Source: Candidatus Methanomethylophilaceae archaeon (lineage in GTDB: Archaea; Thermoplasmatota; Thermoplasmata; Methanomassiliicoccales; Methanomethylophilaceae). From it: 64,000 nt of DNA. The stretch covers positions 186,001 to 250,000 of the forward strand of contig CALUHR010000013.1 in assembly GCA_944320495.1 (NCBI GenBank). Reading direction: 5' to 3'. A model generated the notes under the pieces. It searched no databases. It had not been told where the DNA came from and saw only the letters and a list, made by a program, of their open reading frames with translations. Position numbers and translations under genes: made by a program. Positions 7,618-23,731 of this stretch are shown in pieces. Position 1 is the first letter of the stretch. Each line of letters begins with the position of its first letter.

Positions 7618-8700
7618 TTAGTGTTCACACGCGCACGCGAATCGGTGTATATACACGTTTTCGGAGCTTCGCTCGCGGAGAATCGCGTCCACCGCATCGG
7701 AGAACGGGACATCCCCGCCGACGCGGAATGTGCGGCACCCCAGACGGCGACCGAACTCCATGTCGGAGTCGCTGTCGCCGACCATCCACGACCTGGACGG
7801 GTCTATGCCGTACCTGGCCATGGCGGCGAGCCCCATGCCTATCTCCGGCTTGCGGCACGAGCAGTTCTCGTCCGGCCGGTGGGGGCAGTAGAAGATGTCG
7901 TCGATGCGCCCGCCCCCGGCCTCGACGGTGCGCCGGAGCTTGGAGTGGATGGCATCGAGGGTCGCGAGGTCGAAGTAGCCGCGGTTGAGCCCGGACTGGT
8001 TGGTTATCACTATGACCAGGTATCCTGCGCGGTTGAGCCTGGCGATCGCCTCCGGGACGTCGGGGTAGACCTCGAACTTGTCCGGGTCGTCGCAGTAGGG
8101 GACGTTCCTGGCGACGGTGTCGTCCCTGTCGATGAATACGGCTCGGCTGCCGAAGAGCTCCCTCTCGACGATGCCGGCCACGATGTGGCAGGCGCAGAGG
8201 TAGCCCTCCTGGACGTGGGGGGTCTCGGTGGTGGGGATGACGACCGCGTGGTCCGCGATCTCCCTCATCTTCCCGCAGTCGCCGGTGAAGGCGATGGTCA
8301 CGCCTCCGCGGGCCTTGGCCTCCTCCATCGCGAGGATCACGTTCTTGGAGTTGCCGGATGTGGAGAGCCCGACGAGGACGTCCCCCTTCCTGCAGATCCC
8401 CTCGACCTGCCTCTTGAACACGATGTCGTAGCTGTAGTCGTTCCCGATGGCGGTCACGGGGGCGATGTTGGACAGGCACACGCCGGGGAGCGCGGGACGC
8501 TCCATCATGTACCTGCCGGAGAACTCGGCGGCGATGTGCTGCGCGTCTGCGGACGAACCGCCGTTGCCGCAGAATATGACCTGATTGCCGTTGCGGAACG
8601 CATCCCTGATGATGTCCGCAGCTTTCCTGATCTGGGCGGGATCGATCGCGGAGATCGCCGCAGCCGCCTTCCCAAGCTCCGCCGTAATCGCGTCAGTCAT
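7618..8700 (-). CDS. gmhA-gmhB: Bifunctional sedoheptulose-7-P isomerase / heptose-bisphosphate phosphatase (GmhA-GmhB fusion)
   Basis: Two complete domains lie in one 360-residue chain. Residues 1-190 are a SIS isomerase of GmhA type with GNGGSSADAQHIAAEFSGRY, the phosphate loop GLSTSGNSKNV and a late catalytic His (CACHIVAGI). Residues 190-345 are a HAD phosphatase of GmhB type with VFIDRDDTVARN, ITNQSGLNRGYF, the zinc-ligand loop CPHRPDENCSCRKP and VGDSDSDMEFG. Together they would make D-glycero-D-manno-heptose 7-phosphate and, after phosphorylation, heptose 1-phosphate. The stop region overlaps nothing; the start overlaps the upstream HddA gene by 8 bases, so both are co-translated. Confidence 0.9.
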   Translation of the reverse strand: MTDAITAELGKAAAAISAIDPAQIRKAADIIRDAFRNGNQVIFCGNGGSSADAQHIAAEFSGRYMMERPALPGVCLSNIAPVTAIGNDYSYDIVFKRQVEGICRKGDVLVGLSTSGNSKNVILAMEEAKARGGVTIAFTGDCGKMREIADHAVVIPTTETPHVQEGYLCACHIVAGIVERELFGSRAVFIDRDDTVARNVPYCDDPDKFEVYPDVPEAIARLNRAGYLVIVITNQSGLNRGYFDLATLDAIHSKLRRTVEAGGGRIDDIFYCPHRPDENCSCRKPEIGMGLAAMARYGIDPSRSWMVGDSDSDMEFGRRLGCRTFRVGGDVPFSDAVDAILRERSSENVYIHRFACACEH

Positions 8701-9709
8701 TTGGATATCTCCAGGATGTCACGCCCTGGGGCTCGAACATGAAGTCGGTGACCTTCGCGCCCATCTTCCCGAGCTCCTGCGCGACATTGTACTTGCGGTC
8801 GTATTCGCATATGAAGTACATGAACCCGCCACCTCCGGCGCCGGTGACCTTGCCACCTATCGCGCCGGCCGACCGCGCGGCGGAGTACATCGCATCTATC
8901 TGCGGATTGGTGATCTTGTTGGAGAACTGCTTCTTGTAGGTCCAGGCCTCGTCGAGGATCTCCCCGGCGGTCCTGATGTCGCCCCTCTCCATGGCCACGT
9001 TCATGGCCTTCGCCAGCCCCTTGGTCCTGTCCAGGGCCTCCTCGTTCTGACCCTTGTTGAACTTGGAGACCTGGCTCTCGATGATGGAGGCGGACTCGCG
9101 GGTGTGGCCGATGTAGCACAGGAGCGAGCAGTACTGGAGTTCATTGACGGTGTCCGGGTCGATCCTGACGCGGTTGACGTTGACGCCGCTGCTGTTGAAG
9201 AGCATGTAGTTGAAACCGCCAAACACTGCCGCGTACTGGTCCTGCTTGCCTCCCTTGAGACCTATGTCCTCCCTCTCCAGCTTGTAGGCCAGGCTGGCCA
9301 TCTCGTGGCCGGTGAGCCTGATGTTCTGCCACTCGCACATGGCAGCGATGATGGAAACGATGACCGTCGACGAACCCCCGAGGCCGGATCCGGGAGGGGC
9401 CTCGGACTGCAGGAACATCTTGAATCCGTCCGTGACCTCGAAGTGGTTGGTCACGGCCTTGATGAGGTCCATGTTGCCGTCGAGCTTGAGCGGTCCGCCG
9501 TCGAGGGACGCCTCGTACTTCCCGTAGTCGGTGGAGTGGACAGACATGGAGTGGTCGTCGGTCGGGGTTATCGTGCAGTATGCATAGCGGTTGATGGTCG
9601 TGTTGAAGACCGCTCCGCCCTTCTTCGACGCGTACGGGTCGACGTCGGTGCCACCTCCCGCGAGGCCTATCCTCAGTGGCGCCCTAGCCCTGTAGTGCGT
9701 ACCATGCAT
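8693..9709 (-). CDS. hddA: D-glycero-D-manno-heptose-7-phosphate 1-kinase (GHMP family, HddA-like)
   Basis: The 338-residue protein follows the HddA pattern. The N-terminus is RARAPLRIGLAGGGTDVDPY. The GHMP ATP loop is EAPPGSGLGGSSTVIVSIIA (near 105-124). The kinase-specific GLKGGKQDQYAAVFGGFNYM follows, and the C-terminal motif 3 is GGKVTGAGGGGFMYF. It phosphorylates heptose 7-phosphate at C1, the step between the two activities of the downstream GmhA-GmhB fusion. In bacteria the alpha-anomer kinase belongs to the GDP-heptose route rather than the ADP-heptose (HldE) route. An alternative is another sugar kinase of the same subfamily, such as fucokinase-like enzymes. Confidence 0.88.
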   Translation of the reverse strand: MHGTHYRARAPLRIGLAGGGTDVDPYASKKGGAVFNTTINRYAYCTITPTDDHSMSVHSTDYGKYEASLDGGPLKLDGNMDLIKAVTNHFEVTDGFKMFLQSEAPPGSGLGGSSTVIVSIIAAMCEWQNIRLTGHEMASLAYKLEREDIGLKGGKQDQYAAVFGGFNYMLFNSSGVNVNRVRIDPDTVNELQYCSLLCYIGHTRESASIIESQVSKFNKGQNEEALDRTKGLAKAMNVAMERGDIRTAGEILDEAWTYKKQFSNKITNPQIDAMYSAARSAGAIGGKVTGAGGGGFMYFICEYDRKYNVAQELGKMGAKVTDFMFEPQGVTSWRYPND

Positions 9710-9852
9710 CCCATTTACCCCTAGAGACGCCCCGATGTAGACAGGGTGTCTGATTTCGCAATTCTATGGGTAATATATAACAATGAGCGTCGAACCCTGC
9801 GATTTCCACGTGCTGGCACATTATGCGGTAGCGCGAAAGGCCAGTCCTCGCA

Positions 9853-9859
9853 TTTATAA
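9853..9859 (+). promoter_or_regulatory. TATA box deciding the GT4 start
   Basis: TTTATAA lies 23-29 bases upstream of ATG 9882. In-frame ATGs at 9861 and 9783 would lie at or upstream of the predicted transcription start, so they are rejected as starts. Confidence 0.6.
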
Positions 9860-9881
9860 CATGGAAGACGATTGCCGACCG

Positions 9882-11030
9882 ATGCGGATCGCGATGATGA
9901 CCGACAGCTGGTACCCCACGAGGGACGGCGTCGTCACTTCTGTCACCATAATCAAGGAGTCCCTGGAAGCACTGGGGCACGAGGTGTTCATCATAGCCCC
10001 GGAGCCCGAGGAGGAGTTCAGGCAGGACGGGGTCTACTACTTCCCGTCCGTGCGCTTCAAGTCGTACGATGGGTACTACGTGCCGATCTACCCCTCCCAC
10101 AAGAAGAGGATCCTGAAAGAGATCGACCCCGACGTCATCCACATACACGGCGTGGCCACCATGGCCATAAGGGGCCTGATCAGCGGCCACGAGCTGGGGA
10201 TCCCCACGGTCATGACGTTCCACACCATGGTGGACGACGCCGCCCGCTACTATTCCCCGATCAAGATGTCCCCGCAGACCATGGAGAGGCTCATCTGGAT
10301 CTACCTCAGGCAGATCCTGAAGCGCGCCGACGTCGTCGTCACGCCCACGTCGTGCATCGGCAGGGAGCTCGCATCCCACGGCGCCGAGTGCAGGAACCTG
10401 GTGACCATCCCCACGGGGACGGACGTCGCGAAGTTCCACCCCGGGATCGAATCCGGGTACGTCAGGGATAGGTACGGCCTCGAGGGCAGGAGGGTCGTCA
10501 TCCACGTCGGCCGCATATCCTACGAGAAGGATCTGGACATGGTCGTCCGCGCCATGACGAAGGTCGACGCGGTGCTCCTCGTGGCCGGGAAGGGCCCGGC
10601 AAAAGAGGACATCGAACACCTCGTGGACGAGCTGGGCCTCCGGGAGAAGGTCGTTTTCGCCGGCTTCGTCCCCGACGAGGAGCTGCCGGCGTTCTACAAC
10701 GCGGCGGACATAGCCGTCTCCGCGTCCAAGTTCGAGACTCAGGGACTGTCCATCCTGGAGGCCATGGCTTCCGGGAAGCCGGTCGCCTGCAGGAACGGCC
10801 GCGCATTCGCGGAGATCGTGAGGGACGGCGAGAACGGGTACCTCTTCGACGACGTCGATGGGTGCGCCGCCGCCATGGAGAGGGCGTTCGACGCGCCGGC
10901 GGAGGTCCGCGAGGCCTCGTACCGCACCGCACTGGAGAACTCCCGCGAGAGGAGCGCCGAGCTCTACGTCGGGGCGTACGAGCTGGCGAAGAGGACGAGG
11001 GCGGAGAGGATCGGCCATGGGACTGAGTGA
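9882..11030 (+). CDS. Family 4 glycosyltransferase
   Basis: A 382-residue GT-B enzyme. The acceptor domain starts MRIAMMTDSWYPTRDGVVTS and has VIHIHGVATMAIRG and TFHTMVDDAARYY. The donor domain carries VVIHVGRISYEKDLDMV and the GT4 signature KFETQGLSILEAMASGKPV, whose Glu residues hold the nucleotide sugar. It resembles archaeal and bacterial diacylglycerol or lipid glucosyltransferases. It heads a three-gene operon with a DedA-like membrane protein and a second GT4, joined by overlaps of 14 and 4 bases. That points to membrane-lipid or lipid-linked glycan synthesis. Confidence 0.88.
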   Translation: MRIAMMTDSWYPTRDGVVTSVTIIKESLEALGHEVFIIAPEPEEEFRQDGVYYFPSVRFKSYDGYYVPIYPSHKKRILKEIDPDVIHIHGVATMAIRGLISGHELGIPTVMTFHTMVDDAARYYSPIKMSPQTMERLIWIYLRQILKRADVVVTPTSCIGRELASHGAECRNLVTIPTGTDVAKFHPGIESGYVRDRYGLEGRRVVIHVGRISYEKDLDMVVRAMTKVDAVLLVAGKGPAKEDIEHLVDELGLREKVVFAGFVPDEELPAFYNAADIAVSASKFETQGLSILEAMASGKPVACRNGRAFAEIVRDGENGYLFDDVDGCAAAMERAFDAPAEVREASYRTALENSRERSAELYVGAYELAKRTRAERIGHGTE

Positions 11031-11604
11031 GTGGCTGTTCGGGCTGTTCTCCGGCATGGGGGACCCTGGGATCGTCCTGTGCGTTTTCCTGCTCTTCCTG
11101 ATCGACGCCCTGTTCTTCCCCACCTTGCCGGAGCTGTTCATGGTCCTCGGCTTCGGGGCCAACCCCACATTGGAGTTCGCGGTCGTCCTGCTCGGGGTGG
11201 CGATAGTCGCCGAGCTCGTCGGCGTGTTCACGCTGTACTTCGTGGTATCGAGGATCAAGGTGCCGGAGCGCATATCGCGCATCGCGAAGAAATACATCGG
11301 ATTCCTGGTGGTCAGCGACGAGAAGATAATCCTGGTCAACCGCGTGGCGCCCATGATCCCCTTCCTCGGTGCGTTCATCGCCATGATAGACACGTGGGAC
11401 AGGCGCAAGTGCGCGCTGTACATCGTGATCGGCTGCGTGCTGAAGTACGGGGTCATCCTCGCCGCCAGCGGGTTCTTCCTCAACTATCTGGGAAGCGACA
11501 CGGCCCAGAGCGTCACGCTCGTCTTCATATTCGCAGTGCTCATAGTGAGCTTCGTCGCCTCCTTCTACAAGAAGAGGAAGGAGGGCCTGGAGGGATCCGA
11601 ATGA
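11017..11604 (+). CDS. DedA/VTT-like small membrane protein
   Basis: About 195 residues with four to five hydrophobic segments, including GIVLCVFLLFLIDALFFPTL, FAVVLLGVAIVAELVGVFTL and LYIVIGCVLKYGVILAASGF. The sequence around LVNRVAPMIPFLGAFIAMID, with an Arg and Pro in a re-entrant-like segment, recalls DedA/VTT proteins, which handle polyprenyl-phosphate or phospholipid movement. Its start lies inside the upstream GT4 and its TGA overlaps the downstream GT4's ATG. A role in recycling or flipping the lipid carrier used by these transferases is an inference. Confidence 0.65.
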   Translation: MGLSEWLFGLFSGMGDPGIVLCVFLLFLIDALFFPTLPELFMVLGFGANPTLEFAVVLLGVAIVAELVGVFTLYFVVSRIKVPERISRIAKKYIGFLVVSDEKIILVNRVAPMIPFLGAFIAMIDTWDRRKCALYIVIGCVLKYGVILAASGFFLNYLGSDTAQSVTLVFIFAVLIVSFVASFYKKRKEGLEGSE

Positions 11605-12677
11605 GATTCGTGGACGTCAACCCGTTCTTCTATCCGCATCACGGCGGCATCGAGACCCGTATGCACGACACCGCCAGACTGCTGGCCGCCAGAGGGCACG
11701 ACGTCACCATCCTCACCGGAAGGCTCCCGGACACGCCCGAGGAGGAGAGGACCGAGTACGGATACAGGGTCGTCCGCCTGCCCTCGAGGCTCATCAACGT
11801 ATACAACCCCCCGTTCATCTCGTCCAAGGGGGTGTTCGAGACCCTCGAGTCCATGGACGCCGACGTCGTGAACTACAACTACCGCTGGGCCCCGTCCTAC
11901 AACAAGGACCTGAAGAGGTACGACGGCAGGAAGGTGTTCACCTACCACAACATGTGGGGCGAGGGCATAGGCGTGCAGGCGAGGCTGTCGGAGATCAACG
12001 ACAACGGCTTCCGCTCCACCCTGGACACATTCGACCACATCGTCTGCGTCAGCGATTACGTGAAGGGGGACCTGATCCGCAGGGGGATCCCCGCGGAGAG
12101 ACTGACCACCATCCCCACCTGCATGGACATGCCCCCTCTGAGGAACGTCCCCGAAGGCGATTACATCCTCTCGCTCGGAAGGCTCGTGGCCACCAAGGGA
12201 TTGAGCTACCTCATCGATGCGATGGAGGAGATCGACTGTCGGCTGGTTCTCTGCGGCAAGGGCCCGGAGGAGAAGGAGATACGCCGCAGGATCGAGAGGC
12301 TCGGGCTGCAGGACAGGGTCGACATGCGCGGATACGTCCCCGAGGAGGAGAAGGACTCACTGATCGACGGTTGCAGACTGTTCGTCATGCCGTCGCTCTT
12401 CGAATCGTTCGGACTGGCCGCGCTGGAGGTCATGTCGCATGGCAAGCCCCTTGTCTGCACGGACGTCAACGGCCTGCCGGACACCGTCCGCGACGGCGGC
12501 GTCCTGGTGCCGCCGAGGGACTCCCGCGCCATAGCGTCCGCGGTGAACTCGCTGCTTGCGGACGATGGTGGGAGAAAAGAGAAGGGGATGCGGGCCAGGG
12601 CGGTCGCGGAGACCTACACCTGGGACCGCTGGATCCCCGTGTACGAGAAGGTCCTTGCCGACGTCACAGCGCGTTGA
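11601..12677 (+). CDS. Family 4 glycosyltransferase
   Basis: A 358-residue GT-B enzyme. The N-terminal domain opens MRFVDVNPFFYPHHGGIETR, the glycine-rich acceptor loop. The donor domain has YILSLGRLVATKGLSYLIDA and the signature SLFESFGLAALEVMSHGKPL. It couples to the DedA-like gene by ATGA. The stop overlaps the convergent ACT-domain gene by 14 bases, with both stop codons intact. Sugar and acceptor are not predictable; location suggests surface glycan or glycolipid. Confidence 0.88.
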   Translation: MRFVDVNPFFYPHHGGIETRMHDTARLLAARGHDVTILTGRLPDTPEEERTEYGYRVVRLPSRLINVYNPPFISSKGVFETLESMDADVVNYNYRWAPSYNKDLKRYDGRKVFTYHNMWGEGIGVQARLSEINDNGFRSTLDTFDHIVCVSDYVKGDLIRRGIPAERLTTIPTCMDMPPLRNVPEGDYILSLGRLVATKGLSYLIDAMEEIDCRLVLCGKGPEEKEIRRRIERLGLQDRVDMRGYVPEEEKDSLIDGCRLFVMPSLFESFGLAALEVMSHGKPLVCTDVNGLPDTVRDGGVLVPPRDSRAIASAVNSLLADDGGRKEKGMRARAVAETYTWDRWIPVYEKVLADVTAR

Positions 12678-13026
12678 GCGCCTTGACGTAGTGGTCGGGC
12701 TTCATGCGGTCGATGACCTCCTCGACCTCGTCCGACCCTCCGACCAGACCGACGTTGCCGTTGCTGGTCGAGATGAGCGCGTAGGCGGACTGCCCCGACT
12801 CGGGGATGAGCTCCGCCTCGTAGACGTCCTGGAGCTTCTGGAGCCTTCCGATGGCGGTCTGCGCGGCATCGTGGCCGACGACGGACAGGACCATCCTGGA
12901 CTTGCCGGGGAGCTCGCACTTTCCGACGACGATGGTCTCGACGTTGATCTTGTTGCGGGTGAACTCCCCCATGACCCTCTGCATGACCCCGAACTCGTTC
13001 TTGACGATTAGAGAGATGACGTGCAT
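12664..13026 (-). CDS. ACT-domain protein, acetolactate synthase small-subunit-like
   Basis: The 120-residue protein starts MHVISLIVKNEFGVMQRVMG, the ACT fold of IlvN/IlvH. The amino-acid-binding Gly and Asn positions are in FTRNKINVETIVVG. The bacterial C-terminal regulatory half of IlvH is absent. The second half reads like another short ACT-like segment (AELIPESGQSAYALIST). It may regulate acetolactate synthase or act alone as an amino-acid sensor; no large subunit is in the window. It diverges from the GT2 gene across one symmetrical TATA element. Confidence 0.7.
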   Translation of the reverse strand: MHVISLIVKNEFGVMQRVMGEFTRNKINVETIVVGKCELPGKSRMVLSVVGHDAAQTAIGRLQKLQDVYEAELIPESGQSAYALISTSNGNVGLVGGSDEVEEVIDRMKPDHYVKALNAL

Positions 13027-13055
13027 GTTTCCACCGTGGCCGCGAAGGGAATACA

Positions 13056-13064
13056 GATATATTT
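13056..13064. promoter_or_regulatory. Shared bidirectional TATA element
   Basis: GATATATTT lies 26 bases (centre) upstream of the GT2 ATG at 13086 and 34 bases from the ACT ATG at 13026. It is the only AT-rich element in the 59-base divergent gap, so both genes appear to depend on it. Confidence 0.5.
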
Positions 13065-13085
13065 GGCTGTGCTGGGCGACACCGA

Positions 13086-14012
13086 ATGTCTGACGGGAGC
13101 ATGGACGGGAAGGGGTCCGCCGACCCCATTGGTATCTCCATCGGCATCTGCGCCTACAACGAGGAGGGCATCATCGAGAGGTCAATCCGCTCGATATACG
13201 ACCAGAGGCTCGACGGCATAGAGGTCAGGGAGGTGCTGGTCGTCTCCAGCGGGAGCACCGACCGCACCGACGAGATCGTCCGCTCCCTCATGACCGAGTT
13301 CGACAACATCGTGTTCCTTCCCCAGGAGAGGCGCGAGGGCAAGAACTCGGCGATCAACCTCTACCTGGACAACATGACCTCGGACATCGCCGTCATGCTG
13401 AACGCCGACAACCTCTTCGCCTGCGAGGACTCTCTCCAGCGCCTGGTCGAGCCGTTCAGGGACCCGGAGGTCGGGATGGTTGGCGGGCATCCCATACCAA
13501 CCAACGACCCGTCCGACAAGGTGGGATTCGCATCCCGGATGCTGTGGGCGATGCACCACAACGTCGCCATGATCTCCCCCAAGATCGGCGAGCTCGTGGC
13601 ATTCCGTGACATCGGCACCAGGCTCAGGACCGACCTCCAGTCGGACGAGGACATCATCCGTATGAACCTGGAGAAGGCCGGATACAGGATCGTCTACGCC
13701 CCGGATGCCACCATCTACAACCGCGGCCCCGAGACCGAGGAGGACTTCCTCAAGCAGAGGGTCCGCGTGAACATCGGCGAGATCACGATGAGGAAGATCT
13801 ACGGCGACGACTACCGGGTGTCCTCGTGGGACAACAAGGTCCTCGTCAGGGCCTACGTCCAGACGATGCGCGACCTGGGCTTCCATCCGCTGAAGATGCT
13901 CTACATGACCCGCCTGGAGCTGAAGGCCCGCAGGATGGCCAAGGAGCACGTCGCCCGCGGTGACGACAACATGAGCTGCTGGGACCCCGTCACCAGCACC
14001 AAGCGCCTCTGA
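13086..14012 (+). CDS. Family 2 glycosyltransferase
   Basis: A 308-residue GT-A enzyme. The nucleotide motif is ISIGICAYNEEGIIERSIRS, with VVSSGSTDRTDEIV following. The metal-binding region is AVMLNADNLFACEDS and the acceptor-side acid lies in LQSDEDIIRMNLEKAG. No transmembrane helices are present. The start at 13086 is leaderless from the shared TATA element. It lies between the GT4 operon and the heptose nucleotidyltransferase, so it probably adds a sugar to the same surface glycan. Donor sugar is unknown. Confidence 0.85.
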   Translation: MSDGSMDGKGSADPIGISIGICAYNEEGIIERSIRSIYDQRLDGIEVREVLVVSSGSTDRTDEIVRSLMTEFDNIVFLPQERREGKNSAINLYLDNMTSDIAVMLNADNLFACEDSLQRLVEPFRDPEVGMVGGHPIPTNDPSDKVGFASRMLWAMHHNVAMISPKIGELVAFRDIGTRLRTDLQSDEDIIRMNLEKAGYRIVYAPDATIYNRGPETEEDFLKQRVRVNIGEITMRKIYGDDYRVSSWDNKVLVRAYVQTMRDLGFHPLKMLYMTRLELKARRMAKEHVARGDDNMSCWDPVTSTKRL

Positions 14013-14049
14013 GAAGGAGATGAAAGCGGTTTCTCGGGACGGACCCGGG

Positions 14050-15072
14050 TCAGACGCTGCGGCCCTCGTCGAGGACCTCCCCAGCCTTCACGACGGTCCC
14101 GTCCGCCAGGACCGAGTTGGACACCTTCGCGCCCTTCCCTATCCTGCATCCCTCCCCGAGGATCGAGTTGACGATCTCGGCGCCGTGCACCTCGCAGCCG
14201 CTCATCACGAGCGCCCTGTCGAGAGTGGAGTTCCTGACGGATGCTGAATCCAGGATCACCGTGTCGGTGAGCCTGCTCCCGTGGGCGGAGGCCCCGTGCC
14301 CGAGATAGAACGGCCCCTCGATGGCGCAACCGGGCGCCTTCCAGTCCCTGTCGCCGTACTCCGCCTCGGCGATGGCGAGGTTCGCCCTCAGCAGGTCCCT
14401 CGGGCGGCCGACGTCCATCCAGATGCCGTCGACGGTGTGACCCTGGATCCTGCGGCCCTCGGACATCAGCTTCGGGACGAGGTCCTTCGAGAAGTCGTAG
14501 AACGTGTGCTCGGGGACCTCGGAGAGCACGTCCTTCTGCAGGACGTACACTCCGGCATTGATGAGGTTGGAGAACACCTCCTCCGGCTTCGGCTTCTCCT
14601 TGAACTCGCTGATCCTGTTGTCGTCGTCCACGCGGGCGATCCCGAACTCGCACGGGTTGTCCACGGGGGTGAGGGCGATCGTCACGGCGGCGCCGGTCTC
14701 CTGATGGGTGCGGATCTCCGCGGACACGTCCATGGAGACGAACACGTCGCCGTTGGCCGCCACGAACGTGTCGTCCAGACGGTCCTCCACCAGCTTCATC
14801 GCCCCGCCGGTGCCCATGGGCTCGTCCTCATAGGAGTACTGGATGTCGATGCCCAGGTCCGAGCCGTCGCCGATCGTGCGGCGCATGAGCTCGGACTTGT
14901 ACCCGCACGCGAGAATGACCTCCTCTATGCCACCGTAGGCCAGCGACCTGAGCAGGTACCAGAGGCACGGCCTGTCCGCCACGGGCAGTATGATCTTCGG
15001 TCTCGTCTCCGTCAGAGGGAGGAGCCTGGTGCCCTTGCCCCCGACCATCACGACCGCCTGTCTCACCTTCAT
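14050..15072 (-). CDS. Sugar-1-phosphate nucleotidyltransferase with left-handed beta-helix (HddC/ManC-like)
   Basis: The 340-residue protein opens with the nucleotidyltransferase loop VVMVGGKGTRLLPLTETRPK and the lysine of PKIILPV. Product-binding YEDEPMGTGGAMKL and the metal-binding FVAANGDVFVS follow. From about residue 240 hexapeptide repeats form a left-handed beta-helix (IEGPFYLGHGASAHG, VNSILGEGCRIGKGA). Bacterial HddC makes GDP-heptose with the same core. It is the only nucleotidyltransferase able to close the heptose pathway here, though GDP-mannose or UDP-sugar synthesis is possible. It overlaps the DUF89 gene by ATGA. Confidence 0.8.
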   Translation of the reverse strand: MKVRQAVVMVGGKGTRLLPLTETRPKIILPVADRPCLWYLLRSLAYGGIEEVILACGYKSELMRRTIGDGSDLGIDIQYSYEDEPMGTGGAMKLVEDRLDDTFVAANGDVFVSMDVSAEIRTHQETGAAVTIALTPVDNPCEFGIARVDDDNRISEFKEKPKPEEVFSNLINAGVYVLQKDVLSEVPEHTFYDFSKDLVPKLMSEGRRIQGHTVDGIWMDVGRPRDLLRANLAIAEAEYGDRDWKAPGCAIEGPFYLGHGASAHGSRLTDTVILDSASVRNSTLDRALVMSGCEVHGAEIVNSILGEGCRIGKGAKVSNSVLADGTVVKAGEVLDEGRSV

Positions 15073-15953
15073 CTGGATCCCTCCGGCATGACGACCTTCA
15101 CCACGTTTATGTTCTGCGGGACCCCGAGCGCCCTTGCCACCGGGGCGCACTTGGAGCGCAGGATGTGCACGACCGGGACTGGGATGCTCCTGCCGGAGGT
15201 GGCCTCGAAGTTGGCCATGCCCTTGGCGATGATGAGCCCGCATCCATCGATCTCCTCCTGGAGGTCCTGGGGGACGTCGTCCCAATCGATGCCGACGTAG
15301 AACTTCCCGGTGCTGAGCAGCCTGTCGGCGACCCTGTCGATGCCCACGCGCTTCGCGTCCTCCATGGTGACGTCGTTGAGGATCGGCGCTCCGCGGACCA
15401 CGCCGACGACGCGCTTGCCCATTTCCCTGAGCAGCCTCATGAGGACCATGTCCAGGCGGCTCTCGCCGCAGTTGTCGAACATGTAGACCACGCCGGGGAC
15501 CTCGGACAGCAGGTCCTCGAGCATGCCGACGTCGTCCAGGCCCAGGCCCTGCGCGACGATGTCGTCGTAGACCTCGGAGAAGAGGTCGGGATCGTCGATG
15601 GTCGCGCCGGACCCGAAATCCATGACGTTGCCCGCGACGGCTCCCATGATGGCCGTCCTGAGGGGCTCGTCCGATGCCTCGACCATCTCCTCCAGCTGGC
15701 GCTCGAACGGCTCAGCGACGGCGTCCGCCCTGCACTTGAGCTCGAAGTAGGGGTCCTCGGACCTGATCGCGCGGTAGGAGCGCCAGTGGACCTCCGATGA
15801 TATCTTGACGGAATCCACCTCGGGGTCCATCCTGCTGCCGAGGACCTCCGCGGCCGCCTTGACGGCGTCGAACTCCAGGCCGTTGCCGACCAGGCGGGAT
15901 TGGAAGAGGACCCGGCGCATGAGACAGGGTCCGCAGTCTGCGGTGAACTTCAT
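15069..15953 (-). CDS. DUF89/ARMT1-family metal-dependent phosphatase
   Basis: The 294-residue protein starts MKFTADCGPCLMRRVLFQSR with the CxxC seen in archaeal DUF89 proteins. The metal site lies in YMFDNCGESRLDMVLM, and GLIIAKGMANFEAT plus HILRSKCAPVARALGV complete the family signature. DUF89 proteins hydrolyse sugar phosphates and damaged cofactor phosphates. It is coupled by ATGA to the nucleotidyltransferase, so it may remove misphosphorylated heptose or hexose in this pathway. That link is inferred from position only. Confidence 0.85.
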   Translation of the reverse strand: MKFTADCGPCLMRRVLFQSRLVGNGLEFDAVKAAAEVLGSRMDPEVDSVKISSEVHWRSYRAIRSEDPYFELKCRADAVAEPFERQLEEMVEASDEPLRTAIMGAVAGNVMDFGSGATIDDPDLFSEVYDDIVAQGLGLDDVGMLEDLLSEVPGVVYMFDNCGESRLDMVLMRLLREMGKRVVGVVRGAPILNDVTMEDAKRVGIDRVADRLLSTGKFYVGIDWDDVPQDLQEEIDGCGLIIAKGMANFEATSGRSIPVPVVHILRSKCAPVARALGVPQNINVVKVVMPEGSR

Positions 15954-16528: not shown

Positions 16529-18055
16529 TCACCGCATCTCCTCGCGCATGCTGCTGGACAGCTTCTTGGGATCCAGAGCATCCTTGAAGAAGGCCGCGTC
16601 CGAACGGGTGAACTCCCTGAACAGCGCGCTCAGTCCGAAGTGCATCGCCAGACAGAACAGCGAGACAGCGACCAGCGGAAGGAACCCGGAGATGCCCAGG
16701 CAGTGGTCGATGACCAGCAGGACGACCGCATCTATCGCGGCCACGACAAGATGCCTCCACAGGCGCCCGTAGAAGCTGATGCCGGCGTATCTGCGGACGG
16801 AGAGGACCAGCATGATCGCCTGGAACAGGTATCCGACGGACATGGCCAGACCGGCTCCCACCGCACCCAGGCCGCACGCGTATGTCGGGATGAACAGGAG
16901 GAATCCCGCCAGGACGACCGCGATGTACATGGCGGAACAGCGGCCGTATACCTTGGCATTGTTCGTCGAATAGAGGACCTGGGTCATGAGTGCGTTGATG
17001 ACCACGGAGTAGAGCACCATGCACTGTACCGACATGACGTCCCCCGACCTCTCGTATCCGGCTCCGAAGAGCACCACGGCGATCTCGCGTCCGAAGATCA
17101 GCATGACGACCATGACGGGGAAGATCAGCAGTGCCAGGTACCTCTCCGTCTTCCAGATCATGCCCTGCATCTCGGCCCGACCGGTTTCGCTCCCGCGATA
17201 CTCCGACAACTTGGGCAGGATTACGGTGTTCAGGGACTTCCCCAGGTTGGAGAACGTCCATATCACGCCCGCGGATGCCGTGTAGTATCCGACCTCCCTC
17301 CCGTCGAAGCTGAACCCGATTATGACCTTGTCCAGATACTCCACGGCAGTGACCAGCAGCAGTGACACCGCGATAGGGGCCGTGAATGCCAGATAGTCTC
17401 TGAGATAGTCCGGACGGCACAGTCTCAGGTGGGAGTGCCTGAAGATCAGGACGCATGAGATCGACGAGGCCGCTATGCCGACGACGTATCCCAATGCCAG
17501 CACCGGGGCCGACACCTGCATGAAGGCAAGCACCGTGAGCGTGACGGCACGCGCCAGGAACTCGACCATCAGGATGAGCGACGACTTGCCGTTCTCCCCC
17601 TTCCCGTCGAAGGTGTAGGTCATCGACGTCTGCAGGTCCCAGACCAGATAGTAGACGACGAACACCAGGACGACCAGGAACGCCTCGTCGTCCATCGAAT
17701 GGGTGAGGACGTAGCTGACATAGGCCGACAGCAGGGAGAGCGCGGCCATGCCCGCACCCATGACGATCTTGATGGTCAGGAACGTCGAGAAGCACCTGTC
17801 GGGATCCCTGCCCTCGGACACGAACTTGACATTGGTCAGGTTGAAACCCATGTCGGTGACCGCGTTGAACACCGCGACGAACGCCCACGCCCACATCATC
17901 ACGCCGTACTGGTCGCTGACGTAACGCGTCATCACCATGAGAGAGATGAACGAGACGAGCGATGCGAAGACGTTGGAGCCCATCTTCATTACGTACTTGT
18001 GGGCGAGCACGGGACTGCGAGGCGTACCACCAATATGTTTTTGTTCCCAAGACAA
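16529..18055 (-). CDS. Polysaccharide flippase (MOP superfamily, Wzx-like)
   Basis: About 508 residues with roughly 14 hydrophobic segments. The N-terminal signature is NVFASLVSFISLMVMTRYVS with DQYGVMMWAWAFVAVFNAVT, typical of Wzx/RfbX proteins. Later LNTVILPKLSEYRG matches the MOP core. Such proteins flip lipid-linked oligosaccharides across the membrane. The start is uncertain: the frame opens at a TTG (18055), but a GTG at 18010 or ATG at 17989 fits the family better. It is divergent from the acyltransferase gene and belongs to the glycan locus. Confidence 0.87.
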   Translation of the reverse strand: MSWEQKHIGGTPRSPVLAHKYVMKMGSNVFASLVSFISLMVMTRYVSDQYGVMMWAWAFVAVFNAVTDMGFNLTNVKFVSEGRDPDRCFSTFLTIKIVMGAGMAALSLLSAYVSYVLTHSMDDEAFLVVLVFVVYYLVWDLQTSMTYTFDGKGENGKSSLILMVEFLARAVTLTVLAFMQVSAPVLALGYVVGIAASSISCVLIFRHSHLRLCRPDYLRDYLAFTAPIAVSLLLVTAVEYLDKVIIGFSFDGREVGYYTASAGVIWTFSNLGKSLNTVILPKLSEYRGSETGRAEMQGMIWKTERYLALLIFPVMVVMLIFGREIAVVLFGAGYERSGDVMSVQCMVLYSVVINALMTQVLYSTNNAKVYGRCSAMYIAVVLAGFLLFIPTYACGLGAVGAGLAMSVGYLFQAIMLVLSVRRYAGISFYGRLWRHLVVAAIDAVVLLVIDHCLGISGFLPLVAVSLFCLAMHFGLSALFREFTRSDAAFFKDALDPKKLSSSMREEMR

Positions 18056-18126
18056 CCAGATAGATACAAAGCGTTCCCTCGCTGGTGTTCACACCTAGAA
18101 ATATAGAGGCGACCCATGCACATGGC

Positions 18127-19242
18127 ATGGAATGCAGGAGCGGCTTCCGCAGGGACTACCTCGACTACAGGAACACGCTGACGGCGAGATTCCTGATGAT
18201 TGCATCCATCTTCATATTTCACGCAGGACTGTTCTTCGGGTTCTCGGTCCCTAACAACGGCCACACGTGCGTCGCAGTATTCTTCTTCCTGTCCGGATAC
18301 GGACTGGAATACAGTCTCTCCAACAAAACCGGATACATGAGGACATTCCTCCAAAAAAGAGCCCTCGGCCTGTTGATCCAATACTGGCTCATCATGATGC
18401 TCTGCGCGGCTCTAACCGGTGTGGCTTATCTGTCATTCCAGTCCTTCATGCAGGACGCGGACAAGTACCTGTTCGAATACGTCAACTGGTACATCCTGGA
18501 GCTCCTGGTGTTCTACGTCATTTTCTTCATATCCGCCATGTTCCATGAGGTCAGATGGAGGTACCTGTTCGTCCTAGTCACCACGATTGCCTCCATGTAC
18601 ATCCTAGCAGAGAACTTCGACACCAACCTGTATCTGAAGTCGGGACTGGTTTTCATCGTAGGAATGGCATGGTACAGGTACAAGGACCGCATCGATGCCT
18701 TCCTCACTAAGTACTACCCTCTGATCATTATCCCCTTAACAGTGCTGCTCCTGATTCCCGAGAGGAGCGATGTGTTCGCCATCGACATGGTCTACACCGG
18801 CATCACGGCGATACTGCTTGTCATCGTCGGATGCATGGTCCTGATGGCGGACCTCAGGAAGAGATGGTACATCCCCCTTCTGGCGCTAATCGTCGGCGGA
18901 GCGGTCATGTTCAACGGATTGGGCACTGCCCAGAACATTGAGGGGGCATCAATGCTGTTCCTCGCAGGACTATCCTGCGTGATCTATCAGATTCCATCGC
19001 TCTGCAAGGCAATGGTTCCCCTCGGCTCCATGTCGCTAGAACTGTTCCTGCTCCACTACATCACGTTCAAGTGGACCTCTTACTACATCGACGATCTGCT
19101 TGTGATAATGATCCTCTCCACGATCATCACCCTGGTCATCTCGTACGCTGCGTATATCGGGGTCGGCCGCATCATGAAAGCGTACAACAGAGGCGTTGAC
19201 ATACTCTGCACGGAGCAGAGGCCCCCCGAGACGACATCATGA
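18127..19242 (+). CDS. Membrane acyltransferase 3 family protein
   Basis: About 371 residues with ten or so membrane helices. The N-terminal IFHAGLFFGFSVPNNG and VAVFFFLSGYGLEYSL match the acyltransferase-3 (OafA/WecH) signature with its conserved His and FFFLSGY. The C-terminal LGSMSLELFLLHYITFKW is the family's late motif. These enzymes O-acetylate glycans across the membrane. An AAATATAG element at about 18098-18105 favours a leaderless ATG at 18127 over an upstream GTG at 18085. Codon use is somewhat less GC-biased than average, which may indicate later acquisition. Confidence 0.8.
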   Translation: MECRSGFRRDYLDYRNTLTARFLMIASIFIFHAGLFFGFSVPNNGHTCVAVFFFLSGYGLEYSLSNKTGYMRTFLQKRALGLLIQYWLIMMLCAALTGVAYLSFQSFMQDADKYLFEYVNWYILELLVFYVIFFISAMFHEVRWRYLFVLVTTIASMYILAENFDTNLYLKSGLVFIVGMAWYRYKDRIDAFLTKYYPLIIIPLTVLLLIPERSDVFAIDMVYTGITAILLVIVGCMVLMADLRKRWYIPLLALIVGGAVMFNGLGTAQNIEGASMLFLAGLSCVIYQIPSLCKAMVPLGSMSLELFLLHYITFKWTSYYIDDLLVIMILSTIITLVISYAAYIGVGRIMKAYNRGVDILCTEQRPPETTS

Positions 19243-19306: not shown

Positions 19307-20683
19307 ATGAGGATGTTCGGAACCAACGGCGTGCGCGGGATAGCGAACGACAGCCTCAGCTGCGAACTGGCACTGCGCATGGGGAAGAGCATCGGGACCG
19401 TGCTCGGCCCGACGATAGCTCTCGCCTATGACACACGGACGTCGTCCCGTATGATCAGGGATGCGGTCCGTTCCGGACTCGTCTCCGTGGGCACGGACGT
19501 CATCGACCTCGGAATGGTCCCTACGCCCGCGCTCCAGCATTATGTGAAGATGCGTCCCGGGATCACCGGGGGGGTCATGATCACCGCCTCCCACAATCCT
19601 CCAGAGTACAACGGCATCAAATGCATCTCCGGCGACGGGACGGAATGCTCCCACGAGGAGGAGCAGAGGATAGAGGATGCGTATGACGGCGACATCCGGT
19701 GCGTAGGATGGGAGTCCATCGGTACAGTCCGCCACGTCCTGGATGCGGCCGAGGAGTATGTGGACTCCATCGTGTCGAAGGTCGACCGCGAATCGATCAG
19801 AGCGGCCCGCCTCACCGTCTGCGTGGACTGCGCCAACGGCGCCTCCGTGGAGACGGCGCCGATGCTCATGAGCAGACTGGGAGTCCGTGCGATCACGATC
19901 AACGGCAACCCGCAGGGCGAGTTCCCCGGCCATCCGAGCGAGCCCACGGAGGAGAACCTGGAGGACCTGAAGAGACTGGTGGTGGACACCGGTGCGGACC
20001 TCGGGATAGCCCATGACGGGGACGCGGACAGATGCGTCTTCGTGACGTCCGATGGACGGTTCGTCAGCGGGGACCTCTCCCTGGCCCTCCTGGCGAGGAA
20101 CGAGCTCTCCAGAAACGGCGGGGGCAGGGTAATGGTTACCGTCGCCACGTCCAAGGTCGTGGAGGACACCGTCGAATCGAACGGCGGAGAGACGGTGTAC
20201 ACGGCGGTCGGGTCCCCCATAGTCGCCCGCGAGATGATCTCAGGGGGAGGGGTCTTCGGCGGGGAGGAGAACGGCGGACTGATCTTCGCCGACCACCAGT
20301 ACTGCCGCGACGGCGGCATGGGAGCCGCGAGGATGCTGGAGTCCATCGCCAGGAACGGCCCCCTGTCCGAACAGGTGGACTCCCTGCCGAGATATCGCAC
20401 CATCAAGAAGGCAGTGAGATGCCCGGACTGCCTCAAGACCGAGGTCATCGAGACCGTGTGCAGGATGCACGAAGACGGCAGGATAGACCGCAGGGACGGG
20501 CTTCGCATCGATTTCGATGACGGCTGGGTCCTGATACGTCCGTCCGGAACGGAACCTAAGTTCAGGATCTACTCCGAATCCAAGGATGATGCGGTCGCCG
20601 AAGCACGCTCCGAATCGTTCGTGAGGGAGATCGAGGACATCATCGGAGAGAGAGCCCGATCGCTCCCTGACGACCTTCCCTAA
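19307..20683 (+). CDS. glmM: Phosphohexomutase (phosphomannomutase/phosphoglucosamine mutase)
   Basis: The 458-residue alpha-D-phosphohexomutase has the four expected sites. N-terminal MFGTNGVRGIAND binds phosphate. The phosphoserine loop is MITASHNPPEYNGIK. The metal loop is HDGDADRCVFV and the sugar/phosphate loop is IRPSGTEPKFRIYSE. GlmM versus ManB specificity is not settled by these motifs. It interconverts hexose 6- and 1-phosphates for nucleotide-sugar synthesis. It abuts the convergent isomerase gene, whose open frame continues antisense into its last 440 bases. Confidence 0.88.
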   Translation: MRMFGTNGVRGIANDSLSCELALRMGKSIGTVLGPTIALAYDTRTSSRMIRDAVRSGLVSVGTDVIDLGMVPTPALQHYVKMRPGITGGVMITASHNPPEYNGIKCISGDGTECSHEEEQRIEDAYDGDIRCVGWESIGTVRHVLDAAEEYVDSIVSKVDRESIRAARLTVCVDCANGASVETAPMLMSRLGVRAITINGNPQGEFPGHPSEPTEENLEDLKRLVVDTGADLGIAHDGDADRCVFVTSDGRFVSGDLSLALLARNELSRNGGGRVMVTVATSKVVEDTVESNGGETVYTAVGSPIVAREMISGGGVFGGEENGGLIFADHQYCRDGGMGAARMLESIARNGPLSEQVDSLPRYRTIKKAVRCPDCLKTEVIETVCRMHEDGRIDRRDGLRIDFDDGWVLIRPSGTEPKFRIYSESKDDAVAEARSESFVREIEDIIGERARSLPDDLP

Positions 20684-21664
20684 CTTCGCCTTGAGCTGCA
20701 TCACCGGCTTCACCTCGGCTGGGTCTATGCCGCGATGCTCCGCCATGTACAATGACATGTAGTCTCCGAGGATGATCGCCCGGAACATGTTCTCGAGCGC
20801 GGACTTCCCTCCGAGCCTGATGACCTTCACCGGTGCGCCGCTGACCTCGAGCTCCTCGGCGACGCCCTCCAACACCCCGGTCCCGCGGCACAGACCGTCG
20901 TCCGCACCGATCAGGAGGATGAACAGGTAGTCCTGACGATCGGTACCGGCCCAGCGGGACACCTCTGGGCATCCCAGCTCCGGAAGCGACTCGCAGAAGG
21001 CCACGAACTTGGAGTTCTCGTTGACCTGGGTCTTCCATCTGAACGCCACCGACTGCATGCTCACATCCGAGCATACGACAGGCACCTTCCCGACCAGGGC
21101 ATCCACCAGCTCATGGGCCAGCGATCCCTCCGCGAGGGCGGCATCGTCCCGGTAGTCGCGGAGCGAGGGGATGAACGCCCTGATCCTCCCGGACAGGTCC
21201 GGTCCACCTGCCGAGCGTATGACGGCCAGCGTGTAACCGATCATGTATCCGATCGCATGCCTGGGATGCATGTCCTTCGGGAGGGGGATGACCTTGTCGC
21301 CTCCGGACTCGGCGGCCTCCCTGAGCAGACCTCCCGACGTCAGCACCACGACCCTGCAGCCGCACGCCTTCGCCTGATGGTACATGTTCATCGTCTCGGC
21401 CGTGTTGCCGGAGTAGCTGGACACTATCGCGAGAGTCCGCGGGCCGACCCAGCTGGGCAGTTCCGGGTACTTCATCAGGCACAGGTACTTGGATGACTCC
21501 GCATAACAGCAATCTGCCGCGAAATCACCGCTGACGGCGGAACCACCGACTCCGCAAAGCAGGATGCTGTCGCAATCGAAGACCTCCCCGGGATCGTATG
21601 ACAATGACTTCTCGAGATCGTCGACGAAATGGTACAGCTGCTCCTTCACGGTGAGACCGGCCAT
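20684..21664 (-). CDS. Bifunctional phosphoglucose/phosphomannose isomerase (PGI/PMI)
   Basis: The 327-residue homologous part has a SIS domain with the phosphate loop IVSSYSGNTAETMN and the Gly-rich LLCGVGGSAVSGDFAADC. A second SIS half carries the family Arg/Glu residues (NENSKFVAFCESLPELG). The late His lies in MAEHRGIDPAEVKPVMQLKA. It interconverts fructose 6-P with glucose 6-P or mannose 6-P. At the family-typical end (LKAKLGKVV) there is no stop; the frame stays open to 20240 through the antisense of the mutase gene. It overlaps the upstream paralogue by TGATG. Confidence 0.85.
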
Positions 21665-22620: not shown

Positions 22621-22628
22621 CCCATCCA

Positions 22629-22650
22629 CTGAATCACCTGAATGATTCAG
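22629..22650. promoter_or_regulatory. 8-bp inverted repeat in the divergent promoter region
   Basis: CTGAATCA and TGATTCAG are perfect inverted repeats separated by six bases. They lie just downstream of the AT-rich element and before the preferred start of the PGI-like gene. They may be an operator or an mRNA hairpin. Confidence 0.4.
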
Positions 22651-22659
22651 CATACTCTT

Positions 22660-22671: not shown

Positions 22672-22705
22672 CGAAACGCGTCTTCCTTTGACATCGGTTG
22701 AAACC

Positions 22706-23731
22706 ATGAGTGCAACGGACCCCACCCTGCAGCATCTCCCCCTCGATGAGTTGAAAGGCAAGAGGATAGCCATCCTCGGAAGCACTGGATTGATCGCATC
22801 CACCCTCGTGGAGAAGCTATGCGGCCTGGATGATGCGCTGGGTCTAGGCTTGGAACTGATCATCACATACCGCGACAGAGCGAAGGTCGAGAGGAGGTTC
22901 TCCGAACTGCGCACGGGATGCGCCATCGAATACCTGAGGTACGATGTCACGGAACCTTTCCCGGATGTTGATGTGGATTTCATCGTCCATTCCGCCAGCC
23001 CGGCGCATCCGAAGGCGTTTGTCGAGAATCCTGTGGGGGTCATGAAGGCCAACATCGACGGCGTCACCAACGTCCTCGAGCATGCCCGCGCCCATCCGGA
23101 GACCCGTGTGCTGTACGTCTCATCTGGAGAGGTGTACGGGTCGAAGACCGAGAACCGCCCCTACGCCGAGACCGACACCGGCCTCCTGGACCCGCTCAAC
23201 TTCCGCGCGTGCTATCCCGAGAGCAAACGCGCCGCGGAGACGTTGTGCAGATGCTATCTGCACCAGTACGGTGTCGATTCGGTGATCGTCCGCCCCGGGC
23301 ACGTGTACGGCCCCGCCCTGATGTCCGAGAGCACCAGGGTCGATGTCCAGTTCATGAGGAACGCCCTCGCAGGGGAGGACATACTCATGAAGAGCCTTGG
23401 ACTGCAGAGACGCTCGTACATCCATGTGGATGACGTCGTCTCGGGCATGCTATTCGCGATGCTGAAGGGGGGCTCCGGAGAGGCCTACAACATCTCCAAC
23501 CGCCACTCCGACATCACGATCCGCGAGTATGCCGAGATCCTCGCCGGGATAGCGGGTGTTTCGGTGCGCATGGAGGTCGATGCGGCCTCATGCACGGGAT
23601 CGTCCCAGGTGCAGGATTCCACGCTGGACTCGTCCAAGCTCGAGGGGCTGGGGTGGGTCCCGCGCATCCGCATGGAGGGGGGGCTCAGGGGGACTCTCGA
23701 TACCCTGCGCTCCCGCGACCGGGTGCTTTGA
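22706..23731 (+). CDS. NAD-dependent epimerase/dehydratase (extended SDR)
   Basis: The 341-residue Rossmann enzyme has the nucleotide motif IAILGSTGLIASTLVEKL near residue 20-37. The catalytic Ser/Tyr/Lys lie in YVSSGEVYGSKTE and YPESKRAAETLC. Then come SVIVRPGHVYGP and the C-terminal YNISNRHSDITIREYAEIL. It resembles UDP-glucuronate decarboxylase and dTDP-glucose 4,6-dehydratase-like enzymes acting on nucleotide sugars. The exact reaction is unresolved. ATG 22706 is chosen over an in-frame TTG at 22688. Confidence 0.83.
   Translation: MSATDPTLQHLPLDELKGKRIAILGSTGLIASTLVEKLCGLDDALGLGLELIITYRDRAKVERRFSELRTGCAIEYLRYDVTEPFPDVDVDFIVHSASPAHPKAFVENPVGVMKANIDGVTNVLEHARAHPETRVLYVSSGEVYGSKTENRPYAETDTGLLDPLNFRACYPESKRAAETLCRCYLHQYGVDSVIVRPGHVYGPALMSESTRVDVQFMRNALAGEDILMKSLGLQRRSYIHVDDVVSGMLFAMLKGGSGEAYNISNRHSDITIREYAEILAGIAGVSVRMEVDAASCTGSSQVQDSTLDSSKLEGLGWVPRIRMEGGLRGTLDTLRSRDRVL

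What the first reader, a model, noticed from the sequence alone, without database searches (positions are those of the whole stretch)
7618..15072. Apparent nucleotide-heptose pathway in an archaeon
A GmhA-GmhB fusion, an HddA-type kinase and an HddC/ManC-like nucleotidyltransferase lie within 7.5 kb, with glycosyltransferases between. Together they cover isomerase, 1-kinase, 7-phosphatase and nucleotidyl transfer for D-glycero-alpha-D-manno-heptose. The pathway is established in bacteria (LPS, S-layer glycans). A compact archaeal version with fused first and third steps looks little described.
Basis: partly seen in the sequence, partly recalled or inferred. Interest (0 to 1): 0.75.

Follow-up and report, generated by a model that had tools for sequence, protein, structure and literature searches.

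The report
Heptose-sugar pathway in gut-type methanogens
A methane-producing archaeon, like about two thirds of its order, carries genes that should turn a common seven-carbon sugar phosphate into an activated heptose, a sugar known mainly from bacterial cell surfaces, with two of the enzymes fused into one protein.

Summary
7618-8700(-) is a 360-aa GmhA-GmhB fusion with both catalytic sites intact. 8693-9709(-) is a GHMP kinase inside the HddA radiation, directly upstream, overlapping the fusion start by 8 nt. 14050-15072(-) is a sugar-1-phosphate nucleotidyltransferase (NTase). The genome belongs to Methanomassiliicoccales.

In 147 genomes of that order, kinase and isomerase/phosphatase co-occur almost perfectly (99 both, 0 kinase only, 2 other only, 46 neither). 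They are adjacent in 83 of the 86 genomes with a one-frame fusion. In 42 genomes the NTase is immediately upstream of the kinase, the order of bacterial NT-hddA-gmhA-gmhB operons. Transketolase and transaldolase can supply sedoheptulose 7-phosphate.

Correction: the NTase is not an HddC orthologue. It forms its own ManC/GMPP-like clade, persists in relatives lacking the heptose genes, and is this genome's only NTP_transferase hit. It was probably recruited, perhaps also serving mannose-1-P.

Archaeal heptose itself is not new: an ADP-heptose cluster was predicted in 2013, archaeal enzymes were assayed in 2024, and a heptose is reported in Thermoplasma N-glycan. New here are the order-wide HddA-type module, the GmhA-GmhB fusion and the recruited fourth step. 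No activity has been tested.

The parts
7618..8700 (-). GmhA-GmhB fusion (SIS isomerase about residues 1-183, HAD-IIIA phosphatase about 185-345): predicted sedoheptulose-7-phosphate isomerase / heptose-1,7-bisphosphate 7-phosphatase
   Evidence: Pfam/NCBIfam/PDB hits; active-site columns conserved in order members; AF2 pLDDT 88.3, two domains matching GmhA (TM 0.87 to target) and GmhB 3l8h (TM 0.80)
8693..9709 (-). HddA-type heptose-7-phosphate 1-kinase (GHMP), first gene of the pair, overlaps the fusion start by 8 nt
   Evidence: PDB 3k85/4n3o/4usk 1e-76 to 1e-69; tree; adjacent to the fusion in 83 of 86 genomes
14050..15072 (-). ManC/GMPP-like sugar-1-phosphate nucleotidyltransferase with C-terminal hexapeptide region; candidate step 4 by context
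   Evidence: PF00483 4e-49, GMPPB 9e-40; immediately upstream of the kinase in 42 genomes; separate from the HddC clade; only PF00483 hit in the genome
15069..15953 (-). DUF89/ARMT1-like damage-control phosphatase, upstream of and overlapping the NTase; role unknown
   Evidence: PF01937 2e-51; paired with the NTase in most loci read
13086..14012 (+). GT2 glycosyltransferase; in many relatives lies convergently right behind the fusion; weak candidate heptosyltransferase
   Evidence: PF00535 2e-24; synteny; but also present in relatives without kinase and fusion
9783..11030 (+). GT4 glycosyltransferase
   Evidence: PF00534/PF13439
11020..11604 (+). small hydrophobic protein conserved between the two GT4 genes; no Pfam or NCBIfam family
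11604..12677 (+). GT4 glycosyltransferase
   Evidence: PF00534/PF13439
16529..18055 (-). polysaccharide flippase-like membrane protein
   Evidence: PF13440 9e-21, PF01943 2e-17
18085..19242 (+). membrane acyltransferase (Acyl_transf_3)
   Evidence: PF01757 1e-13
19307..20683 (+). archaeal GlmM/phosphomannomutase-type mutase: possible hexose-1-phosphate supply for the same NTase
   Evidence: TIGR03990 543 bits, cut-off 439; PGM_PMM domains
20681..21661 (-). phosphoglucose/phosphomannose isomerase-like protein; a weaker match of the same family at 21667-22653(-)
   Evidence: PF10432; TIGR02128 186 bits, below the 214-bit cut-off
22688..23731 (+). NAD-dependent nucleotide-sugar epimerase/dehydratase; could modify an activated sugar
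   Evidence: PF01370 1e-43; no NCBIfam equivalog cut-off reached

Best explanation
The module makes nucleotide-activated D,D-heptose for the cell-surface glycan. The GmhA half of the fusion isomerises sedoheptulose 7-phosphate to D-glycero-D-manno-heptose 7-phosphate; the HddA-type kinase phosphorylates C1 (alpha); the GmhB half removes the 7-phosphate, giving D-glycero-alpha-D-manno-heptose 1-phosphate. A resident ManC/GMPP-like nucleotidyltransferase, not an HddC, then makes NDP-heptose (probably GDP, perhaps alongside GDP-mannose), and glycosyltransferases of the same island pass heptose to a surface glycan. Shown by computation: family identities, intact active sites, operon linkage, co-occurrence, and genes for making sedoheptulose 7-phosphate. 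Inferred: substrate, anomer, nucleotide and glycan destination.
For: Sequence and fold matches to solved GmhA, GmhB and HddA. GmhA His61, Glu65, Gln172, His180 (E. coli numbering) in 23/23 order members, while E. coli DiaA lacks Glu65 and His180; GmhB D11/D13, zinc ring C92/H94/C107/C109, R110/K111 and D140 in 24/24. Order kinases form one clade (support 100) among HddAs, its inner branches largely following the families. Co-occurrence 99/0/2/46. NTase-kinase-fusion order in 42 genomes equals bacterial NT-kinase-SIS-HAD operons L082 and L102. Transketolase and transaldolase lie about 1 kb apart on the same contig.
Against: No biochemistry. NCBIfam equivalog cut-offs are not reached (HddA 294 of 600 bits, gmhA 176 of 209). 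The NTase is not HddC by tree and occurs in genomes without the module. The GT2 is likewise not confined to module carriers, and no GT9-type heptosyltransferase was found. The co-occurrence count is not corrected for shared ancestry.
Confidence: 0.68

Rival explanations
1. Steps 1-3 are right, but the NTase is only a GDP-mannose (or other hexose) pyrophosphorylase; heptose 1-phosphate is activated by an enzyme elsewhere in the genome, of another family or on missing sequence.
For: NTase closest to GMPP/ManC, kept where the heptose module is absent; isomerase and mutase genes that could supply a hexose 1-phosphate lie in the same island. The genome is only about 91% complete.
Against: It is the only PF00483 hit found in the genome and sits directly upstream of the kinase in 42 genomes of many genera.
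Confidence: 0.2
2. A beta-type route: the module feeds ADP-heptose as in E. coli or the reported archaeal ADP-heptose systems.
For: Archaeal ADP-heptose synthesis is documented (PMC11461863, PMC11573728). The beta-named models PRK08942 and GmhB_yaeD score above the alpha-named model NF050049 for the HAD half.
Against: The kinase is a GHMP HddA-type protein, not a PfkB-type HldE kinase, and the NTase is PF00483 rather than an HldE-type domain (HldE architecture from memory). HldE was not searched genome-wide.
Confidence: 0.06
3. The SIS-HAD/kinase pair acts on a different sugar phosphate, and the heptose label is carried over from bacteria.
For: Identity to the solved bacterial enzymes is only about 37-47%; a second, divergent kinase/SIS pair exists in some genomes of the order, showing that the families diversify.
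Against: The tested catalytic residues are kept; three families are linked just as in bacterial heptose operons; a source of sedoheptulose 7-phosphate is present.
Confidence: 0.06

Closest known systems
GDP-D-glycero-alpha-D-manno-heptose pathway of bacteria (GmhA, HddA, GmhB, HddC)
   Same: Same first three enzyme families; same gene order NT-kinase-isomerase-phosphatase as in clostridial operons L082 and L102.
   Different: Isomerase and phosphatase are fused; the fourth enzyme is a ManC/GMPP-like NTase with a hexapeptide tail instead of HddC.
Archaeal ADP-heptose enzymes (Methanococcus maripaludis; [quoted passage not shown]
   Same: Archaeal nucleotide-heptose synthesis; the Iplasma cluster was likewise linked to surface glycosylation.
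   Different: Described as ADP/beta routes; here the kinase is HddA-type, which points to the alpha route.
Thermoplasma acidophilum N-glycan with D-glycero-D-galacto-heptose (Vinogradov 2012, as cited in PMC12448462)
   Same: A heptose in the surface glycan of an archaeon of the class Thermoplasmata.
   Different: Different heptose configuration; no genes assigned to it in the passages I read.
Bacterial fusions of the same pathway: HddC-GmhB (L113, L114, L117, L124, L138, L140, L142, L144) and GmhB-GmhA in reverse order (Lachnospiraceae, L120)
   Same: Pathway enzymes fused into one protein.
   Different: Different partners or domain order; GmhA-then-GmhB was seen only in Methanomassiliicoccales among the 80 loci.

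Membership tests
GmhA (sedoheptulose-7-phosphate isomerase) | Catalytic Glu65 and His180 with His61, Gln172 and Ser/Thr 119-124 (E. coli numbering; roles from memory) | tested here: met
   Present in the window protein and in 23/23 order members except one T120A; DiaA lacks E65 and H180
GmhA (sedoheptulose-7-phosphate isomerase) | SIS domain groups with GmhA sequences | tested here: met
   Best solved match GmhA 2xbl 1e-47; within the GmhA radiation in the tree, whose deep branches are poorly resolved and also hold E. coli DiaA
GmhA (sedoheptulose-7-phosphate isomerase) | NCBIfam equivalog cut-off (TIGR00441) | tested here: not met
   176 bits against 209, still the best family; so the claim is a GmhA-type enzyme, not a curated equivalog
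GmhB (heptose-1,7-bisphosphate 7-phosphatase) | HAD DxD motif, zinc ring CxH...CxC, Arg-Lys pair | tested here: met
   Conserved in 24/24; shared with HisB-N, so not specific alone; GmhB 4pnh 7e-37 against HisB 3e-22
GmhB (heptose-1,7-bisphosphate 7-phosphatase) | Preference for the alpha anomer | not testable with these tools
   needs assay; model scores favour the beta-named models
HddA (heptose-7-phosphate 1-kinase) | Groups with solved HddA rather than fucokinase or galactokinase | tested here: met
   262/248/239 bits to 3k85, 4n3o and 4usk, 86 to fucokinase, up to 48 to galactokinases; tree (long fucokinase and galactokinase branches not reliably placed)
HddA (heptose-7-phosphate 1-kinase) | NCBIfam equivalog cut-off (NF049969) | tested here: not met
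   294.5 bits, by far the best family, against a cut-off of 600
HddA (heptose-7-phosphate 1-kinase) | Kinase activity on heptose 7-phosphate | not testable with these tools
   needs assay
HddC (heptose-1-phosphate guanylyltransferase) | Groups with HddC | tested here: not met
   Own clade outside the group with Campylobacter HddC; 111 bits to the HddC model against 244 to a mannose-1-P guanylyltransferase model
HddC (heptose-1-phosphate guanylyltransferase) | Lies in the operon with the kinase | tested here: met
   Immediately upstream of the kinase in 42 genomes; in the window 4.3 kb away
ADP-heptose (HldE, beta) pathway | HldE-type kinase/nucleotidyltransferase | not tested
   None among the cluster genes annotated; no genome-wide search was run (cap reached)

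The most novel reading that the evidence does not exclude
An order-wide archaeal alpha-heptose pathway in which one resident GDP-mannose-type nucleotidyltransferase activates both mannose 1-phosphate and heptose 1-phosphate, with a GmhA-GmhB fusion that keeps the isomerase and phosphatase together, giving heptose-bearing surface glycans in gut methanogens.
Probability: 0.4. Interest if true: 0.62.

Novelty: new variant of a known kind. Interest (0 to 1): 0.48.

Why it matters
Heptoses are often treated as bacterial sugars, and their beta forms trigger ALPK1-dependent innate immunity (PMC11461863). Methanomassiliicoccales include gut members. If most of the order makes an HddA-type activated heptose, that shapes what their surface looks like and raises the question whether the host senses it. 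It is also a clear case of a pathway that kept three enzyme families, fused two of them, and probably took its last step from a resident enzyme. Species of one genus with and without the module make the glycan question directly testable.

Tried and rejected
(1) A swap of a mannose module (PGI/PMI plus mutase) for the heptose module at one locus, suggested by G077 and G078: rejected, since the window genome has both. (2) NTase and GT2 as heptose-dedicated because of synteny: rejected, since both occur in genomes without kinase and fusion. (3) Fusions outside the order (G147, G301): the tblastn match bridged two neighbouring ORFs; they are separate genes. (4) Apparent fusions on Rhizobium and Indioceanicola plasmids: separate adjacent ORFs. 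(5) The fusion as an assembly artefact: rejected by 86 genomes with a one-frame match. (6) The fucokinase position in the kinase tree: a partial sequence on a long branch, not used; bit scores used instead. (8) Searches for papers on the HddA route or a GmhA-GmhB fusion in archaea gave nothing relevant.
Full report
OBSERVATION. 7618-8700(-) encodes 360 aa: residues 17-140 match SIS_2 (6e-27), the C-terminal half matches HAD-IIIA/histidinol-phosphatase-type families, and the closest solved proteins are GmhA (1e-47) and GmhB (7e-37). 8693-9709(-) is a GHMP kinase nearest the solved HddAs 3k85 and 4n3o and the sugar kinase 4usk (Burkholderia WcbL, name from memory). 14050-15072(-) is a PF00483 nucleotidyltransferase with a hexapeptide-type tail. 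The kinase ends inside the start of the fusion (ATGACTGA, 8 nt). An AlphaFold model of the fusion (mean pLDDT 88.3) has two well-formed domains that match GmhA (TM 0.87 to target) and GmhB (TM 0.80) structures; the last 13 residues are of low confidence.

WHOSE GENOME. The window is part of a 1.77-Mb genome, about 91% complete. One member of the same family, G049, is 100% identical over 12,990 bp to a contig titled Methanomassiliicoccaceae archaeon Th196P4bin34, and a kinase titled Methanomassiliicoccus falls in the same clade. The order is therefore Methanomassiliicoccales.

CONSERVATION. Of 147 genomes of the order, 102 match the fusion or parts of it and 99 match the kinase. Tallied by genome, 99 have both, none has the kinase alone, two have the isomerase/phosphatase alone and 46 have neither (Fisher p about 3e-36, but not corrected for shared ancestry). 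86 genomes give a one-frame match over both domains, and in 83 of these the kinase is immediately upstream. In 42 genomes of many genera the NTase is immediately upstream of the kinase, and in most loci read a DUF89 gene precedes it: DUF89 - NTase - kinase - fusion, often with a GT2 gene convergent right behind. The window's arrangement, with glycosyltransferases between, looks like a later rearrangement (inference). The bacterial loci L082 and L102 have the same order NT - kinase - gmhA - gmhB as separate genes, so the fusion probably arose from neighbouring genes of such an operon (inference).

ACTIVE SITES AND TREES. GmhA His61, Glu65, Gln172 and His180 (E. coli numbering) are present in 23/23 order members; E. 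coli DiaA lacks Glu65 and His180. The GmhB catalytic aspartates D11/D13, the zinc ring and the Arg-Lys pair are present in 24/24. The order's kinases form one clade (support 100) inside a mixed bacterial and archaeal HddA tree that also holds the Bacteroides, Campylobacter and Burkholderia proteins, and branches inside it largely follow the families. The module was thus probably in an ancestor of the order and lost several times (inference). Fucokinase and galactokinases are far behind in score; their tree positions are unreliable.

THE FOURTH STEP. The NTase does not belong with HddC. The order's NTases form a clade (support 99) apart from the group that holds Campylobacter HddC and the NTs beside bacterial hddA genes. 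Its best models and structures are mannose-1-phosphate guanylyltransferases, whereas a bacterial NT beside hddA is closest to HddC. Relatives at E <= 1e-15 are present in 135 of 147 genomes, including close relatives without kinase and fusion, where it stays paired with DUF89 in a general glycan locus. In the window's genome it is the only PF00483 hit, while mutase and isomerase genes that could supply a hexose 1-phosphate lie in the same island. The simplest reading is one enzyme serving both sugars; that is a hypothesis.

SUPPLY AND USE. Transketolase (C13:391891-392655, N-terminal part) and transaldolase (C13:393635-394270) lie about 1 kb apart, so sedoheptulose 7-phosphate can probably be made. 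No GT9-type heptosyltransferase was found; candidate transferases are the GT2 and GT4 genes of the island, with a flippase-like gene at 16529-18055. The GT2 also occurs without the module, so its assignment to heptose is weak.

KNOWN AND NEW. [quoted passage not shown] PMC3750248), an ADP-heptose cluster is described in Methanococcus maripaludis strains (PMC12667266), and archaeal ADP-heptose enzymes were assayed in 2024 (commentaries PMC11461863 and PMC11573728; I did not read the Science paper itself). D-glycero-D-galacto-heptose is part of the Thermoplasma acidophilum glycan (PMC12448462, citing Vinogradov 2012). I found no paper on an HddA-type module or GmhA-GmhB fusion in Methanomassiliicoccales, but only open-access papers are held. 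Fusions of pathway enzymes also occur in bacteria: HddC-GmhB in eight of the loci scanned, and GmhB-GmhA in reverse order in one Lachnospiraceae genome. The verdict is a new variant of a known kind, of moderate interest.

WHAT REMAINS OPEN. Substrate, anomer, nucleotide and final glycan are all inferred. The beta route was not excluded by a genome-wide search for HldE. The co-occurrence was not tested on a tree.

Noticed in passing
G076 C1:1861558 and C1:1869209; G120 C30:14053 and 14723; G038 C3:211247/212804 and 230408/232363; also G056, G072, G098, G099: Some relatives carry a second stand-alone SIS protein (31-42% identical) and a divergent HddA-like kinase (30-35%); similar kinases occur in other Thermoplasmata (L052-L055) and in a Rhizobium operon. 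Possibly a second heptose-type sugar.
   Followed up: partly
L039 (G034) 9897-11091; similar split matches in G037, G039, G040, G046: The fusion is split: the GmhB half stands alone, and the SIS gene next to it in G034 groups with Lachnospiraceae-type GmhA, suggesting replacement by transfer from gut bacteria.
   Followed up: partly
window 15069-15953; L035-L045 and L153-L164: A DUF89/ARMT1-like damage-control phosphatase is paired with the NTase in most loci read, with or without the heptose genes; its role beside a sugar nucleotidyltransferase is unexplained.
   Followed up: partly
L071 2248-5775 (Rhizobium jaguaris plasmid pRCCGE525c): Operon of an HddA-like kinase, NTase, SIS, HAD and a transaldolase-like gene: a bacterial heptose-type operon that may bring its own sugar-phosphate supply.
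   Followed up: no
L120 7121-8392: A 423-aa GmhB-GmhA fusion in reverse domain order in a Lachnospiraceae genome.
   Followed up: yes
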